Source: Bacteroidota bacterium (GTDB taxonomy: Bacteria; Bacteroidota; Bacteroidia; B-17B0; Aurantibacillaceae). Taken from it: a stretch of 64,000 nt of DNA. Positions 23,510-32,520 of the stretch are shown one piece after another. Within the stretch, counting starts at the first letter, position 1. The number at the start of each line of letters is the position of its first letter. The position numbers and the translations under genes were made by a program. The stretch is taken from contig SYAL01000047.1 of the NCBI GenBank assembly GCA_005787585.1, positions 62,001 to 126,000 of the forward strand, written 5' to 3'. The notes beneath the pieces were generated by a model. It saw nothing but the letters and a program-made list of their open reading frames with translations, made no database searches and was not told the origin of the DNA.

Positions 23510-23941
23510 TTACTTTTTAGCGCTTAAAATACGAAGTTTAATTGCGCTATTTATTGTTTTAGAGCCATTAGAGCGGCCTTGATTGGTTATGTAATAAAGC
23601 ATTTTATTAGTAGCCGCATCAAAAACAACATACAAACTCGATTCGTCTTTATATCTTTTAGAGCCGCCTCTAAGCGAAGACTCTTCGTATAAAACATTAC
23701 GATCTACGCTTTGATATTCGCGCTTGTATAAATAAAGCAAAACTTTGGTTTGATTTTCGATAATTGAGTATACATCTTTTGGATCAACACCCAAAGTTGC
23801 TGTTACTTCGTTTAAATACATGCCTTCACGTAAATTAAACATTTTTTCGGTTGTGGTGCAATAGTTATTTTGAACAACCTTACAATTTGTTATCGAAAAT
23901 ATGAAAACAACTGCCATTAATTTTAATATGTTTTTTTTCAT
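23510..23941 (-). CDS. Small BamE/SmpA-like lipoprotein A (copy 1)
   Basis: This 143-residue predicted lipoprotein has a signal ending SITNC (Cys20). The core MFNLREGMYLNEVTATLGVDP followed by a Tyr-rich strand and YVVFDAATNKMLYYIT resembles the BamE/SmpA-type fold, in which a G-M-x-x-x-E-V helix precedes 'LG.P' and a 'v.F' strand. That is a pattern-based inference. A paralogue of the same length sits at 24938-25369, sharing GVDPKDVYSII, SLRGGSKRYKDE and TNKMLYY. It lies 51 bases behind the larger lipoprotein B at 23993 and 52 bases before the FISUMP gene. No function is known; envelope localisation is likely. Confidence 0.75.
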   Translation of the reverse strand: MKKNILKLMAVVFIFSITNCKVVQNNYCTTTEKMFNLREGMYLNEVTATLGVDPKDVYSIIENQTKVLLYLYKREYQSVDRNVLYEESSLRGGSKRYKDESSLYVVFDAATNKMLYYITNQGRSNGSKTINSAIKLRILSAKK

Positions 23942-23992
23942 TGTTTATTTTTTAAAATTTAATTTTATGTAATAACTAGTTTAAATATTGAA

Positions 23993-24904
23993 TTAATTTT
24001 GTTTAAATAAATTTGGCTTTTCTATGTTTGCATTTTCTTCGTCTCTTTTTTGTTTTTTTGCCGCGTTTTCTTCATTACTTTTTTGCTTTTTTGCCTTTTT
24101 TACAGGTATTTCTGGACTTGCATTATTATCCTCATCGCTTACAGGTTCGGTTAAAGAAATAATGGTTTTCTTTTTAGATGGCGAAAAAGCATTTCTTAAT
24201 GAGTTAGAATTAGAGCCCAAACTAATTGTAATATTTGCATTAGGATTAGAAGCAATTCTTTCTACAATATCACAATTTGTACATTCTTTCTTTTTATCTA
24301 CTTCTATATTAGCGGTTTTAGGTTTAATAGGAATAAATTCTAAATTACACTCAGATATTGGTCTTTTTTTATTAAAGTTAGGATTAACCTTAAGCCCACA
24401 TTCTACATATTTACAGCTTCCGTCAGATACAACAGCATTTTTATTGTAATTTATACTCTCCGGATCCATACAACCAGCTACTCCTTTTTCGCTACATGCG
24501 TCTTTTACACCAACAATATCATCCATTAATGATTCTAAATCTTTTTTTCCGGCATCTGTAATAAGGGAGTTTAATTTACCATTTCTAAATACTAAATAAG
24601 CATCTTCTGGTTTTTCATATTGTAATTGTCCTGAAGACAAGCCGCTTTCGAGTTCTTGACTTTTGGCGTTTAATTTGTGGCAAGATTTTTTGTATTTGTA
24701 TTGGTGCACTTCGCAATCTTGAGACCAGCCGGCCAAAATATCATAAGGGCTAGTATTGCCTAAATTAATTTTTACTTGTGCTTTTGGGGTGCCAATTGTT
24801 AAAGCCGCTAATTCTTTTGAAGAAACAAAATTAGGCACTATTTTATATGTAACACAGCTACTTAAAAATAAAGCTGTGATTATTATTAAAGTTATTTTTT
24901 TCAT
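23993..24904 (-). CDS. Lipoprotein B (copy 1) with BamE-like and GCMDPESINYN modules
   Basis: This 303-residue lipoprotein has a signal ending LFLSSC (Cys17). Residues 28-115 read like a BamE-type unit (ELAALTIGTPKAQVKINLGN ... YLVFRNGKLNSLITDAG). Around residue 145 is GCMDPESINYNKNAVVSDG followed by SC, the cysteine-flanked 'GCTDP..NYN..A..DDGSC' module common in Bacteroidota surface proteins. Around residue 205 is a CTNCDIVER motif. The last 70 residues are a low-complexity Lys/Glu/Asn-rich tail that the paralogue at 25402 (234 residues) lacks. It is in tandem with the small lipoprotein A genes on both sides, with gaps of 33-51 bases. The function is unknown. Confidence 0.75.
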   Translation of the reverse strand: MKKITLIIITALFLSSCVTYKIVPNFVSSKELAALTIGTPKAQVKINLGNTSPYDILAGWSQDCEVHQYKYKKSCHKLNAKSQELESGLSSGQLQYEKPEDAYLVFRNGKLNSLITDAGKKDLESLMDDIVGVKDACSEKGVAGCMDPESINYNKNAVVSDGSCKYVECGLKVNPNFNKKRPISECNLEFIPIKPKTANIEVDKKKECTNCDIVERIASNPNANITISLGSNSNSLRNAFSPSKKKTIISLTEPVSDEDNNASPEIPVKKAKKQKSNEENAAKKQKRDEENANIEKPNLFKQN

Positions 24905-24937
24905 AATTAGATATAAAAATTATTTAATTTAAAGGGA

Positions 24938-25369
24938 TTATTTATTAGTTAATAATTTTAATTTTAAGGCTTCATTCAATTTTTTAGAACCAGATTTTCT
25001 TCCTTTTTCGGTTACGTAATAAAGCATCTTATTTGTTGTTGCATCAAAAACTACGTACAAATTATTTTCGTCTTTATATCGCTTTGAGCCGCCTCTTAAA
25101 CTTTGTTCGTCTTTTTCAAATTTTGCATTAATTTGCTGGTGCTCGAGCTTGTAGGCATAAACTAACACTTTTGTTTGGGTTTCGATAATAGAATAAACGT
25201 CTTTAGGGTCAACTCCTAATGTAGTTGAAACTTCGTTTAAATACATGCCTTGATGTATGTTAAATATTTTTTCTACAGTTGTGCAAGGGTAATTCATAGA
25301 TGGTATAACAACCGCACAATTAGAAAATAAAAGTAGTATTGCAAAAATATATAAGATGTTTTTTTTCAT
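24938..25369 (-). CDS. Small BamE/SmpA-like lipoprotein A (copy 2)
   Basis: This 143-residue lipoprotein (signal ending LLFSNC, Cys18) is a paralogue of the gene at 23510. Shared blocks include MYLNEV, TLGVDPKDVYSII, SLRGGSKRYKDE and LYVVFDA. The N- and C-termini differ more than the core, as expected of an old duplication. It sits between the two lipoprotein B genes. No catalytic residues are apparent. The BamE-like fold is inferred from the pattern GM...EV..TLG...V and the 'VVFD' strand; binding to another envelope protein is the most natural role for such a fold. Confidence 0.75.
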   Translation of the reverse strand: MKKNILYIFAILLLFSNCAVVIPSMNYPCTTVEKIFNIHQGMYLNEVSTTLGVDPKDVYSIIETQTKVLVYAYKLEHQQINAKFEKDEQSLRGGSKRYKDENNLYVVFDATTNKMLYYVTEKGRKSGSKKLNEALKLKLLTNK

Positions 25370-25401
25370 TTTTTTTAGTTTTAACTATTTATATTTTAAA
25401 T

Positions 25402-26106
25402 TTAATTATCTCCCGAAAGATTGAGATTAACATTAACGCCTGATTTTCCATTAGATAATCTGTCTATAATGTCGCAATTGCTGCAGGGTTTCTTTTTTTC
25501 AACAGTATTTTCTACTGGTTTTTTTACTGCAATACATTTTGTGTTACAAGATGATACGGGCCTGTTTTTATTATAATCAGGATTTTTTACAAAATCACAA
25601 GGGCAGTATTCGCAATTTCCATCAGCAATAATAGCATCTTCGTTATAATTTAAACTTTCAGGATCCATACATCCGCGAAGATTTTTTTCACCACACACGT
25701 CTGTAATTTTTGTTACATCTTTAAGTAGTTCTTCTAATTCACCTTTACCAATATCAGTTAATAAGGAACTTAGCTTGCCGTTTTTGTAAACCAAATAAGC
25801 ATTAGCATCTTCATTGGGATATAGTTTTCTGCCATTGGTTAAGCCACTTTCTAAGTCTTCTTCAGAAGGAAATAGCTCTTTTTGTGTTTGTTTATATTTG
25901 TAGTGGTGCACTTCGCAACCTTGCGACCAGCCAGCTAAAATATCAAATGGGTTGGTGTTGCCTAAATTAGTTTTTACTTGATTTTTTGTAGAACCAATTG
26001 TTAAACTCGCTAATTCTTTAGACGAAACGTAATTAGGTATAGTTAAAAAAGTTCTGCAACTTGATAAAACTAAAGTGCTAACTAAAATTAATAATGTTTG
26101 TTTCAT
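25402..26106 (-). CDS. Lipoprotein B (copy 2) with BamE-like and GCMDPESLNYN modules
   Basis: This 234-residue lipoprotein (signal ending LVLSSC, Cys17) is a paralogue of the gene at 23993. It keeps the N-terminal unit (SSKELASLTIGSTKNQVKTN, NTNPFDILAGWSQGCEVHHY), the cysteine-flanked module RGCMDPESLNYNEDAIIADG near residue 145 and the CSNCDIIDR motif near residue 208. It lacks the charged tail of the other copy. It follows the outer-membrane barrel gene by 45 bases and precedes lipoprotein A copy 2 by 32 bases. The A and B genes evidently duplicated as a pair. The function is unknown. Confidence 0.75.
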   Translation of the reverse strand: MKQTLLILVSTLVLSSCRTFLTIPNYVSSKELASLTIGSTKNQVKTNLGNTNPFDILAGWSQGCEVHHYKYKQTQKELFPSEEDLESGLTNGRKLYPNEDANAYLVYKNGKLSSLLTDIGKGELEELLKDVTKITDVCGEKNLRGCMDPESLNYNEDAIIADGNCEYCPCDFVKNPDYNKNRPVSSCNTKCIAVKKPVENTVEKKKPCSNCDIIDRLSNGKSGVNVNLNLSGDN

Positions 26107-26151: not shown

Positions 26152-26814
26152 TTATAACATGTATCCGATTGAAAAAGTAAATAAATAGTTATTATCTCTC
26201 CACAGTGGATAATTGTAATACAATCCGGGGTTAATTGTAAATCTTGAAGTTGAAAATGAAATTTGTACTTTTTTAAATTCAATACCAAGATTAACTTGAA
26301 GCGTGTTGTATAAATAAAAGCGAGAAGGATGATCAAAGGATGTGTCAAAATTATTTATTTTCATTAAAATAGAATTATCAATTTCATCCTTATATGAAGT
26401 TTTATCAGAAAGCGTTAAAGCCAGTTTTGGCCCAGCAGAAACAAAAAATAATGCAGACTTAATATAAAAATATTTTTTTATTAAAATTGGAATGTGCAAT
26501 TCTGTAATTTTTCTTACTTTAGAAAAGTTGTGATAAGCATTGTCGGAGAAATAGGCATAATATGAATTTGTGACAATTTTTTTACTGTTTTTAAAGTTTA
26601 AGTATAAGCCAGTTTCTAAAGATAAAAGTAATTTGTTTGAAAGCACCTTTTCATAAGTAACACCATAGCTTTTTGAATTCCAGCGATTACTAGCTTTAGG
26701 ATATCTAGTAGCATCTCCTTGATCTAAAATAATTTTAAATCCTATTTTTTGCTGAGCATTAATTGCAGTAGTAAAAATAAACAATAATAAAAAAGATGGT
26801 AATATTGTTTTCAT
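26152..26814 (-). CDS. Outer-membrane beta-barrel protein (small, PorT-like)
   Basis: This 220-residue exported protein has a signal peptide ending INAQ (residue 21). The mature part has alternating hydrophobic/polar strands (SLETGLYLNFKNS, LHIPILIKKYF, ALFFVSAGPKLALTL, NTLQVNLGIEFKKV, YLFTFSIGYML), the pattern of an eight-stranded outer-membrane barrel as in the PorT-like/OMP_b-brl families. It is the first gene of the minus-strand run that continues with the lipoproteins at 26106-22681, so it may supply the membrane partner of those lipoproteins. That partnership is inferred from gene order alone. Confidence 0.72.
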   Translation of the reverse strand: MKTILPSFLLLFIFTTAINAQQKIGFKIILDQGDATRYPKASNRWNSKSYGVTYEKVLSNKLLLSLETGLYLNFKNSKKIVTNSYYAYFSDNAYHNFSKVRKITELHIPILIKKYFYIKSALFFVSAGPKLALTLSDKTSYKDEIDNSILMKINNFDTSFDHPSRFYLYNTLQVNLGIEFKKVQISFSTSRFTINPGLYYNYPLWRDNNYLFTFSIGYML

Positions 26815-28350: not shown

Positions 28351-28403
28351 TATTATCTATAAAGATAATCATAAAATTAAATTCACAAAGTGAATTTAAT
28401 TTT
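28351..28403 (-). terminator. Strong inverted repeat at the end of metH
   Basis: A perfect 14-base inverted repeat (28373-28386 and 28390-28403, loop AAA) overlaps the metH stop codon. A second smaller one (ATTATC/GATAAT, 28352-28357 and 28364-28369) follows it on the minus strand. The stems are AT-only apart from two G/C pairs, and the descending arm is T-rich. It probably acts as the metH terminator or mRNA 3' end stabiliser. Confidence 0.6.
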
Positions 28404-31400
28404 AAAGCATAGCGGGCCCTAACCATTTTTGAGCCTCTTGAAGTTTTATTTTTTTTCGTTCGGCATAACTTTGAACTTGCTCGTTATTTATTTTACCTAA
28501 ACCAAAATAATGTGATTGTGGGTGCGCCATATAAAGTCCGCTAACAGCGGCAGTTGGAACCATGGCAAGGCTTTCTGTTAAAAATATATCGGTATTTTTT
28601 TCAACCTCTAATAATTTCCAAATGGTTAGTTTTTCGGTATGATCTGGCTGCGCGGGGTAGCCTGGCGCTGGACGAATTCCGTCATATTCTTCTTTAATTA
28701 AGTCGTCATTTTTAAAATTTTCATCTTTTGCGTAAGCCCAAATTTCGGTTCGTACTTTTTTGTGCATTAACTCCGCAAAGGCTTCGGCTAATCTGTCTGC
28801 TAATGCTTTTAACATAATGGCACTGTAATCGTCGTTGTCAGCTTCAAACTTTTTTATATGCTCATCAATGCCAATACCTGTTGTTAAAGCAAAAGCGCCT
28901 AAATAATCTTGCTTTCCTTTAGGAGCAATAAAATCAGATAAAGCAACATTATATTGGCCTGCAGGTTTTTTACTTTGCTGCCTCAACGAATAAAATGTTG
29001 CTAATACATTTCCTTTTTCATCATAAACTTCGGTATCATCGTCGTTTATCGTATTTGCTGGATATATTCCAATTACTGCATTAGCTTGCAACCATTTTTG
29101 TGAAATTATTTTGTTGAGCATACTCTGAGCATCGTTAAATAATTTGGTTGCTTCAATTCCGCGAGTTGCATCTGTTAATATTTTTGGGTACGAGCCCTTC
29201 ATTTCCCAACTGTGAAAAAAAGGAGTCCAATCTATGTATTCTGAAATTTCTTTTAAATCGTAGCTATTAAACACTTTGTTTCCAATAAAAGAAGGTTTGG
29301 TAATATTTGTTTTGGACCAATCTATCTGAAATTTATTTTGCCGCGCTTCGGATAATGAAATTAATTTATTTTGAGATTGAGCATTTTTGTTTTGATCTCG
29401 AACGCGCTCATAGTCTTTATTTAAGTTATCAATAAATCCTTGGCGCAATTCGTTTGAAATTAAACTACTTGTAACCGGAACAGACTTACTGGCATCGTTT
29501 ACATGAACAACCGGACCCGAATAGTTTGGAGCTATTTTAACGGCGGTATGTACTTTTGAAGTTGTAGCGCCTCCAATTAATAAAGGGAGTTTAAAGTTTA
29601 AACGCTCCATTTCTTTCGCAACATAAACCATTTCGTCTAAGGAAGGAGTTATTAAACCGCTTAAGCCAATAATATCTACGTTATTTTTTTTAGCTTCTTC
29701 TAAAATTTTATCACAAGAAATCATTACGCCTAAATCAATAATTTCATAATTATTACAAGCTAAAACAACGCCAACAATATTTTTACCAATATCATGCACA
29801 TCGCCTTTAACCGTTGCCAAAAGAATCTTTCCACGCCCCCTGACCCCCGAAGGTGGAACTTCTTCTGCACTTCTTTGCTCGTTATAGTCATTTTGGTTAT
29901 GTAAGGTTTTTTGTACCTGATTTAAAACAGCATCAATATCTGCTAGTACTTCATCATTCGTAAATCTCAAAACAGTAAATCCAATTGACTCTAACCAAGA
30001 CTGACGAAATTCATCTTTTTCCTTTATTTCCGGCAATTGATGAATCAAGCCGTCTATTTCGATAACTAACCTCTTCTTTAAACAAACAAAATCTGTAATA
30101 TATTTTCCAATTATATGCTGCCTCCTAAATTTATAATTCTCGAGTTTTTTTGATTTAAGACAGTCCCACAAAATTGATTCTGCTTGAGTTGGATTAGCTC
30201 TATGATTTTTAGCAAAATCTTTTAATAGAGTATAGTATTGCGGGTCAGCCCACTCATAGCCGAATTCTGTCCCCTTTCCTTCGGAAAGGGCTAGGGATTG
30301 GCTGTTCTTCTTCTCCTCCAATAAAAAAGGCTCTAAATAAGCAACTGCTTTTTTCATTACCCTTGCGCTTTTTACGACTTGAGGTAAAAACATTTTTCCG
30401 CTGCCAAACAAATCGCCAACAATGTTCATTCCATCCATTAATGGACCTTCAATAACATGTAATGGCCTACCTAATTTAAGTCGCGCCTCTTCGGTATCTA
30501 AATCAATAAATTCTACTAAGCCTTTAACCAGCGAGTAGCTCAATCTTTCTTCAACCGTTCCTTTTCTCCACTCTTGGTCTTTTTCAGTTTTTTCTTTAGT
30601 AATTCCTTTCAAAGATTCAGCATGTTCAACTAATCTTTCGGTTGCATCATTTCTTCTATTTAATAAAACATCTTCAACCAATTCTAACAATGTTTTTTCG
30701 ATATTATCGTAAACTTCCAATTGAGCTGGATTAACAATGCCCATATCCATTCCATGCTTTACTGCGTGGTATAAAAAGGCAGAGTGAATAGCCTCTCTTA
30801 CATGATCGTTTCCACGAAAAGAAAAAGAGACATTACTAACACCTCCGCTTACTTTTGCATAAGGTAAATTTTCTTTTATCCATTTTGTTGAATTAAAAAA
30901 ATCTAAGGCGTTTAGACGGTGCTCTTCCATTCCTGTTGCAACAGGAAAAATATTTGGATCAAAAATAATATCTTGTGGCGGAAAATGTACTTTGTTTACT
31001 AAAATATCGTATGCGCGGCGGCAAATATCTTTTCTGCGCTGAAACGTATCGGCCTGCCCTACTTCATCAAACGCCATAATAATTACAGCCGCGCCATATT
31101 GTTTTATTTTATGGGCTTGTTCAATAAATTTAAGTTCGCCTTCTTTTAATGAAATCGAATTTACAATTGCTTTTCCTTGAACGCATTTCAGTCCAGCTTC
31201 AATTACCGACCACTTTGAAGAATCAATCATTATCGGCACTCGCGAAATATCGGGTTCAGAAGCAATTAAATTTAAAAAAGTGGTCATTGCTGATTCTCCG
31301 TCTAACATGCCTTCGTCCATATTCACATCAATAACTTGGGCGCCTCCATCAACCTGATCTTTTGCAATTGAAAGGGCTTCTTCATAATTTCCTTCCTTAA

Positions 31401-32520
31401 TTAACCTCAGAAATTTTTTTGAGCCTGTTACATTTGTTCGTTCGCCCACATTTAAAAAATTACTTTCGGGGGTAAGAGAAAAAGGCTCTAATCCGCTTAA
31501 ATGCATTATGGTATCGGCGCTTGGCTTTTTTCGTGGAATTGCATTTTTTGCAATTTCGGCAATGCGTTTTATATGAGCTGGGGTTGTGCCACAACATCCT
31601 CCTACAATATTCAAAAATCCTGCTTTTAGAAATTCTTCGATTTGGTGGCCCATTTCGTGCGCGTCTTGATCGTATTCGCCAAACTGATTTGGCAGACCCG
31701 CATTTGGATAAGCGCTCACATAAAAAGGTGCTTTATTTGATAGCTCTTCTAAATAAGGCCTCATGTCTTTAGCGCCTAATGCACAGTTTAAGCCAACGCT
31801 TAATAAGTCAACATGCGAAACGGAATTTAAAAAAGCTTCGGTAGTTTGACCAGATAAAGTTCTTCCGCTAGCATCGGTTATAGTTCCCGAAACCATCACA
31901 GGCATTTTTTTATTAATACTTTCGCAATAATTTTGTATAGCAAATAATGCGGCTTTAGCGTTAAGTGTATCAAAAATAGTTTCGATTAATAATAAATCTG
32001 AGCCTCCGTCAATTAATCCACGAACTTGCTCAGTATAAGCTTCAACTAATTCATCAAAAGTTATGGCTCTATAACCGGGATCGTTAACATTGGGCGATAA
32101 AGAGAGCGTTCGGTTGGTTGGCCCAATGGCGCCGGCAACAAATTTTGGAATATGGGCAAATTCAGGAAATTCGATTTTATACTCTAAAATTGAGGCTTTG
32201 GCAAGTTTAGCAGATTCAAAATTTAATTCGTAAACAAATTCCTGCATGTCGTAGTCGGCCATGGCAATTGTTGTATCGCTAAAAGTATTTGTTTCAATAA
32301 TATCTGCCCCTGCTTTTAAATACTCTTTATGTATTGTTTTTATAATTTGAGGTTGGGTGATAGATAGCAGGTCGTTATTGCCTTGTAAATCTTTGTGCCA
32401 ATCCGAAAAACGCTTACCTCTAAAATCTTTTTCAGTTAATTTATATTGTTGAATCATGCTGCCCATAGCACCATCTATAACTAAAACTCTTTTTTCTAAC
32501 TCTTGTTGTATTGTTGTCAT
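28402..32520 (-). CDS. metH: Cobalamin-dependent methionine synthase with inserted DUF559 domain
   Basis: MetH methylates homocysteine using methyl-THF and cobalamin. Domain order: homocysteine-binding (residues 1-330, zinc ligands Cys246, Cys309, Cys310), pterin-binding (about 350-620), cobalamin cap (about 650-738), B12-binding (898-1040, with GDVHDIG giving lower-ligand His909), and reactivation domain (about 1060-1372, with [15 protein letters not shown]). The protein is about 150 residues longer than a usual MetH because residues 739-896, in the linker between cap and B12 domains, are a complete DUF559 (PD-(D/E)XK-like) domain. The reading frame is intact throughout and all MetH motifs are kept, so the enzyme may still work. 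Expression is governed by the SAM-I riboswitch just upstream. The neighbours are unrelated. Confidence 0.95.
29833..30306 (-). mobile_element. In-frame DUF559 nuclease-like insertion inside metH
   Basis: Residues 739-896 of MetH have no counterpart in normal MetH, where a short linker joins [10 protein letters not shown] to [15 protein letters not shown]. The core (762-873, bases 29902-30237) is a full DUF559 domain. It contains [27 protein letters not shown] and [10 protein letters not shown], keeping Glu781, Asp810, Glu821 and Asp823 of the PD-(D/E)XK site, and it ends with [10 protein letters not shown]. The ends are GC-richer than the host: one has an 8-base hairpin CCCTTTCC-TTC-GGAAAGGG (30272-30290), and the other reads GCCCCCTGACCCCCGAAGG (29835-29853) beside a TTCCAC/GTGGAA inverted repeat. 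I read it as a selfish element that inserted without breaking the frame. Confidence 0.82.

What the first reader, a model, noticed from the sequence alone, without database searches (positions are those of the whole stretch)
23510..26106. Tandem duplication of a two-lipoprotein module
Two small lipoproteins of 143 residues (A) alternate with two larger ones (B, 303 and 234 residues) in the order B-A-B-A, with gaps of 32-51 bases. A matches A and B matches B along most of their length, so the pair duplicated as a unit. Both A and B show BamE-like GM/TIG...EV..LG patterns, suggesting that each pair forms a heteromer, next to an outer-membrane barrel gene (26152). I know of no described system with this arrangement.
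Basis: partly seen in the sequence, partly recalled or inferred. Interest (0 to 1): 0.6.

Follow-up and report, generated by a model that had tools for sequence, protein, structure and literature searches.

The report
Paired BamE-fold lipoproteins beside a barrel
Four neighbouring genes encode two copies of a two-lipoprotein pair, related in fold to the E. coli outer-membrane assembly protein BamE; the pair recurs as a unit in five bacterial families, nearly always next to (once fused to) an outer-membrane barrel gene, so it is probably a dedicated partner of that barrel, though this has not been tested at the bench.

Summary
Confirmed: on the minus strand, barrel - B1 - A1 - B2 - A2, with gaps of 45, 32, 33 and 51 bases. 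A tree shows A and B as two clades with the same branching order; in both, the duplication falls at the same node, so the pair did duplicate as a unit, before the window genome and two relatives split. In five Bacteroidia families every A found sits beside a B (12 of 12 genomes). A barrel gene is adjacent in 8 of the 10 loci where it could be seen, and fused to an A in a ninth. The fold is BamE/BLIP-like (Foldseek: the first 32 hits all belong to that superfamily; hhalign to E. coli BamE E 1.7e-5), but Pfam BamE membership is not met. B carries an extra domain with conserved cysteines. Best explanation: periplasm-facing lipoproteins dedicated to one cognate barrel, working like TpgA with AtaA, not a general BAM subunit. 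The heteromer is untested: my fused-chain model failed (pLDDT 31). New variant of a known kind; moderate interest.

The parts
26152..26814 (-). outer-membrane beta-barrel protein, 220 aa, signal peptide without lipobox
   Evidence: Pfam OMP_b-brl_2 E 7e-7, above cut-off; one of only four such matches in the 1.76 Mb held of this genome
25402..26106 (-). B1 lipoprotein, 234 aa: BamE/BLIP-like domain (about residues 25-135) plus cysteine-rich C-terminal part
   Evidence: weak Pfam BamE match E 0.013
24938..25369 (-). A1 lipoprotein, 143 aa, single BamE/BLIP-like domain
   Evidence: AlphaFold2 model and Foldseek
23993..24904 (-). B2 lipoprotein, 303 aa: as B1 plus a low-complexity Lys/Glu-rich tail of about 70 residues
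23510..23941 (-). A2 lipoprotein, 143 aa
   Evidence: dN/dS 0.13 against the Erken orthologue
25606..25674 (-). GC[MT]DPxSxNYNxxAxxxDGxCxY motif within B1 (residues 145-167)
   Evidence: conserved in the B rows; similar motifs in viral contigs

Best explanation
A and B are lipoproteins of the inner (periplasmic) leaflet of the outer membrane, both built on a BamE/BLIP-like domain, that act as an obligate pair serving one cognate outer-membrane barrel encoded in the same operon. Most likely A and B together bind the periplasmic face of that barrel, helping it to assemble, keeping it in place or closing it, in the way TpgA serves AtaA, while B's cysteine-rich C-terminal domain gives a second binding surface. 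In the lineage of the window the pair was duplicated in tandem and the copies diverged, so that one barrel may use two pairs, or the second pair has gained another client. Shown by sequence: lipoboxes, homology, co-inheritance of A with B, recurrent barrel neighbour, one fusion. Inferred: heteromer, binding to the barrel, role in assembly or anchoring.
For: A and B are separate clades with the same branching order over five families, and both are duplicated at the same node. A beside B in 12 of 12 genomes despite a patchy distribution. Barrel gene next to the pair in the window, G016, G343 (PorP/SprF, E 3e-60), G323, G687, G657, G623 and G288, and A fused to a C-terminal barrel in G109 (OMP_b-brl E 2e-4 for that part). 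A single-lipoprotein sister group lies next to a barrel in G010, G017, G062 and G066. The own genome has only four PF13568 matches, so adjacency by chance is about 0.5% (my estimate, about 1,600 genes). Fold: Foldseek ranks 1-32 are all BamE, BLIP, OsmE, BLP or TpgA-N, best E 4e-3, probability 1.00; hhalign to E. coli BamE probability 78, E 1.7e-5. TpgA-N (9vnj), a barrel-binding relative, is among the hits; TpgA is encoded next to its barrel AtaA and needed for its surface display (PMC5861075, PMC13082670). No acidic residues follow the lipobox Cys in any A or B row, against the surface-lipoprotein pattern of PMC12578637.
Against: No direct evidence of binding: the fused B2-A2 model was uninformative (pLDDT 31). 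The A1 model is of moderate confidence (pLDDT 64) and no Foldseek hit is below 1e-3. The barrels are not one orthologous family (hhalign probability 4-8%), so the partner would have been exchanged repeatedly. G249 has the pair without a nearby barrel. The barrels of G016, G623, G288, G323 and G687 have no Pfam match of their own, and my crude strand-alternation score did not separate barrels from other proteins.
Confidence: 0.5

Rival explanations
1. Ordinary paralogue expansion: a family of small periplasmic lipoproteins that multiply by tandem duplication. A and B act independently, and neighbouring barrels reflect nothing more than clustering of envelope genes.
For: Tandem copies of the wider family also occur elsewhere without any A/B distinction (G538, G724, G175). 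The barrels are unrelated to each other.
Against: A and B are old, separate clades with matching branching order, never found apart. Chance adjacency to a barrel is about 0.5% in the own genome, and the G109 fusion ties A to a barrel.
Confidence: 0.25
2. Accessory subunits of the general BAM machine, replacing the BamE that Bacteroidota are reported to lack (PMC12578637).
For: BamE-like fold and remote similarity; no match above the BamE cut-off in the held part of the genome; lipidated and without surface signal.
Against: Very patchy: A/B pairs in two of the 87 family genomes and a few per cent of the class sample; linked to varied barrels, not to bamA, which lies about 8 kb away; the published Bacteroidota BAM complexes contain no such subunit.
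Confidence: 0.1
3. BLIP-like inhibitors or regulators of a periplasmic or surface enzyme, for instance a caspase-like peptidase, with the barrel as the export or display partner.
For: The fold is shared with BLIP inhibitors, and a partner-binding inhibitory role was proposed for this superfamily (PMC2954215). In five genomes the sister lipoprotein clade lies in an operon with a caspase (C14) gene; G016 has a CHAT gene two genes upstream.
Against: No caspase gene seen beside the A+B pairs themselves in the window or in the stretches read in G109, G249, G343, G323, G687 or G288.
Confidence: 0.15

Closest known systems
TpgA with trimeric autotransporter AtaA (Acinetobacter)
   Same: BamE/SmpA-fold domain encoded in the operon of one barrel and binding that barrel's periplasmic side (PMC5861075, PMC13082670); the TpgA-N structure 9vnj is among the Foldseek hits
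   Different: TpgA has an OmpA-like peptidoglycan-binding domain and is not lipidated; here there are two lipoproteins, no OmpA domain on A or B, and the partner is not a trimeric autotransporter
BamE (PF04355) of the BAM complex
   Same: small outer-membrane lipoprotein, same fold, alignable lipobox and TTxxKLxxLxxGMxxxEVxxxLG stretch
   Different: below the family's curated cut-off; patchy, paired, and linked to varied barrels rather than to BamA
BLIP, OsmE and DUF3192 (BLIP-like superfamily of PMC2954215)
   Same: fold; weak Pfam DUF3192 matches in 7 of 20 members
   Different: no obligate two-gene pair, barrel neighbour or cysteine-rich domain is described for them in the passages I read
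SadB with SadA (Salmonella)
   Same: small lipoprotein that assists surface display of one autotransporter (title and abstract of PMC3953254)
   Different: the abstract describes it as trimeric and similar to MATH domains, not BamE-like

Membership tests
BamE (Pfam PF04355) | score at or above the curated cut-off of 23.2 bits | tested here: not met
   best in own genome 16.8 bits (B1); members of A4 match at best E 4.6e-4
BamE (Pfam PF04355) | BamE/BLIP-like fold | tested here: met
   A1 only: Foldseek ranks 1-2 BamE of Neisseria, many BamE chains below, best E 4e-3; B not modelled successfully
BamE (Pfam PF04355) | outer-membrane lipoprotein signal | tested here: met
   lipobox Cys at residues 17-20 in the four window proteins; no acidic export signal after it
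BamE (Pfam PF04355) | physical part of the BAM complex | not testable with these tools
   needs pull-down or structure
TpgA-type barrel partner | encoded with one barrel gene | tested here: met
   barrel adjacent or fused in 9 of 10 loci with complete flanks; some of these barrels lack Pfam support
TpgA-type barrel partner | OmpA-like peptidoglycan-binding domain | tested here: not met
   no such Pfam match in the window A or B proteins
TpgA-type barrel partner | binds the periplasmic side of the barrel | not testable with these tools
   needs multimer prediction or binding assay
[quoted passage not shown]
   no acidic residue in those positions in any A or B row; criterion from PMC12578637

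The most novel reading that the evidence does not exclude
A and B form an obligate heteromeric lipoprotein complex, with a disulphide-rich domain on B, that is a portable assembly, anchoring or gating partner for individual barrels in Bacteroidia, exchanged between unrelated barrels: a barrel-specific counterpart of BamE in a phylum reported to lack it.
Probability: 0.35. Interest if true: 0.6.

Novelty: new variant of a known kind. Interest (0 to 1): 0.45.

Why it matters
Recent structures show that Bacteroidota assemble outer-membrane proteins with a BAM complex lacking BamE. A two-lipoprotein module with a BamE-like fold, inherited as a pair and tied to single barrels, would show how barrel-specific helpers evolve and gives a small, testable system of three genes. 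It also offers a function for a group of proteins that match no Pfam or NCBIfam family above its curated cut-off.

Tried and rejected
Fused-chain AlphaFold2 of B2-A2, made possible because the two genes are in frame: pLDDT 31, pTM 0.16, no information on an interface. hhalign between the barrels of different loci: no relationship. Strand-alternation score for barrels: does not discriminate, not used. Sigma-70 promoter-like sites: 28 found against 31 expected by shuffling; terminator-like sites: 5 found against 3.6 expected. Viral contigs: no A relatives, only the short GC[MT]DP motif of B. Considered and rejected: assembly artefact (same order in G016); membership of Pfam BamE (below cut-off); surface lipoproteins (no export signal).

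Full report
Observation. The four lipoprotein genes are present as described, on the minus strand, in transcription order B1 (26106-25402, 234 aa), A1 (25369-24938, 143 aa), B2 (24904-23993, 303 aa), A2 (23941-23510, 143 aa), with gaps of 32, 33 and 51 bases; the barrel gene (26814-26152) lies 45 bases upstream of B1. A1 and A2 are 63% identical, B1 and B2 52%. In addition A and B are homologous to each other over about 108 residues (28%, E 4e-8), so all four genes are paralogues of one domain; B has an added C-terminal part.

Relatives. A search of the own genome finds only these four. The same barrel-B-A-B-A order is in G016 of the same genus, which is contig CANKBS010000051; a third relative, the Erken bin contig CAILUU010000044, shows B2-A2 up to its contig edge. 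Profile searches over the family (87 genomes), a class sample (395), four further family sets (240, 64, 10 and 7) and a phylum sample (395) give a patchy distribution. The sets overlap; handles up to G744 were printed, so more than 700 distinct genomes were covered. The pair also occurs in G343, G323, G687, G657, G623, G288, G315, G109 and G249. For G657 the B gene is cut by a contig break, but the two contig ends overlap in sequence; for G315 and G623 the B gene is truncated by the contig end but readable. Thus every A-clade gene found has a B beside it: 12 of 12 genomes in five families. Two more divergent B-like plus lipoprotein pairs are in G460 and G597.

Tree. With 44 domain sequences, B forms one clade (support 100/99) and A another (93/84), and both show the same order: (G109, G249), (G288, G315), then the genus of G323, then G343, then the window lineage split into copies 1 and 2 (the same picture with fewer rows). 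The duplication therefore most simply happened once for the pair, after the split from G343 and before the window, G016 and Erken genomes separated. Against the Erken relative, dN/dS is 0.13 for A2 and 0.29 for B2; in the window-G016 comparison synonymous sites are near saturation, but the barrel has the highest amino-acid change (dN 0.42 against 0.12-0.28).

Fold. Members match Pfam BamE (9 of 20, best E 4.6e-4) and DUF3192 (7 of 20) only weakly; where the cut-off was shown they are below it. A profile search of PDB sequences gives five BamE chains among six weak hits, and hhalign to E. coli BamE gives probability 78, E 1.7e-5, over the lipobox and the following stretch. The AlphaFold2 model of A1 (10 sequences, pLDDT 64, pTM 0.55) has the helix-helix-strands order, and Foldseek ranks 1-32 against the PDB all belong to the BamE/BLIP superfamily (BamE, BLIP, BLP, OsmE and the TpgA N-terminal domain complex), best E 4e-3 with probability 1.00. 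BamE, BLIP and DUF3192 are one superfamily (PMC2954215). I conclude that the fold is BamE/BLIP-like with good but not overwhelming support for A, and by homology for B.

B domain. Eight cysteines beyond the lipobox are invariant in the 11 B proteins with complete sequences. They include one in the BamE-like domain, those of the GC[MT]DPxSxNYNxxAxxxDGxC motif and a C-x2-C motif. In the periplasm these would be expected to form disulphides; this is inference.

Barrel link. A barrel gene is next to the pair in the window (PF13568 E 7e-7), G016 (52% identical to it), G343 (PorP/SprF E 3e-60), G657 (OMP_b-brl E 0.002, below cut-off) with its relatives G323 and G687, and, on inspection only, G623 and G288. 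In G109 a second A is fused to a C-terminal barrel (OMP_b-brl E 2e-4 for that part, below cut-off). G249 has no barrel nearby; in G315 and Erken the contig ends. The sister group of single lipoproteins is next to a barrel and a caspase (C14) gene in G010, G017, G062 and G066; G014 has an LRR protein in place of the barrel, with a barrel-like end by inspection only. The own genome has four PF13568 matches in 1.76 Mb; with about 1,600 genes (my estimate), chance adjacency is near 0.5%. The barrels are not orthologous, which fits a portable partner but also weakens the argument for one fixed function.

Localisation. Each A and B has a lipobox, and none has acidic residues just after the cysteine, so they should face the periplasm (criterion quoted in PMC12578637).

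Mechanism. The best-supported reading is an A+B lipoprotein pair dedicated to one barrel. The closest working parallel is TpgA, whose BamE-fold domain binds the barrel AtaA encoded in the same operon and which is needed for AtaA's surface display (PMC5861075, PMC13082670). The steps from co-inheritance to complex formation and from adjacency to binding are inferred. The one direct test available, a fused B2-A2 model, failed. Rivals are simple paralogue expansion, BAM accessory subunits, and BLIP-like regulation of a peptidase.

Novelty. Published Bacteroidota BAM complexes contain no BamE (PMC12578637, PMC12611786), and the library searches made here did not turn up this arrangement; most subscription papers and all preprints are outside that library. 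I rate it a new variant of a known kind.

Noticed in passing
window 28402-32520 (-): Cobalamin-dependent methionine synthase with an in-frame DUF559 endonuclease-like domain (residues 767-873, Pfam E 1.7e-35) inserted between the two B12-binding domains.
   Followed up: partly
L061:6355-8907, L060:132-2784, L069:4402-7072, L073:5069-7709: Operons of a BamE-like lipoprotein, an outer-membrane barrel and a caspase-like (C14) protein in four genomes of the window's own family; a fifth (L058:7479-11099) has an LRR protein in place of the barrel.
   Followed up: partly
L209:5468-6668: Tandem pair of the same wider lipoprotein family next to a gene with a weak match to T6SS VasE (E 0.008).
   Followed up: no
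L056:7469-11027 (-): CHAT-domain protein (E 1e-14) with a TPR-like protein and a sigma-factor-like ORF upstream of the barrel-B-A-B-A cluster in G016; not seen in the window.
   Followed up: no
window 25606-25674 and L148-L174: The GC[MT]DPxSxNYNxxAxxxDGxC motif of B also occurs in 27 IMG/VR viral contig loci.
   Followed up: no
L135:7075-7917: Single BamE-like lipoprotein (280 aa) in G355 with a C-terminal part that looks like a barrel by eye but has no Pfam match; possibly a second, independent fusion.
   Followed up: partly
L062:6974-7420, L063:7161-7634, L067:6204-6662, L075:5947-6402: A separate subgroup of about 150-residue lipoproteins with a C-terminal hydrophobic stretch, single copy, with no barrel neighbour seen.
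   Followed up: no
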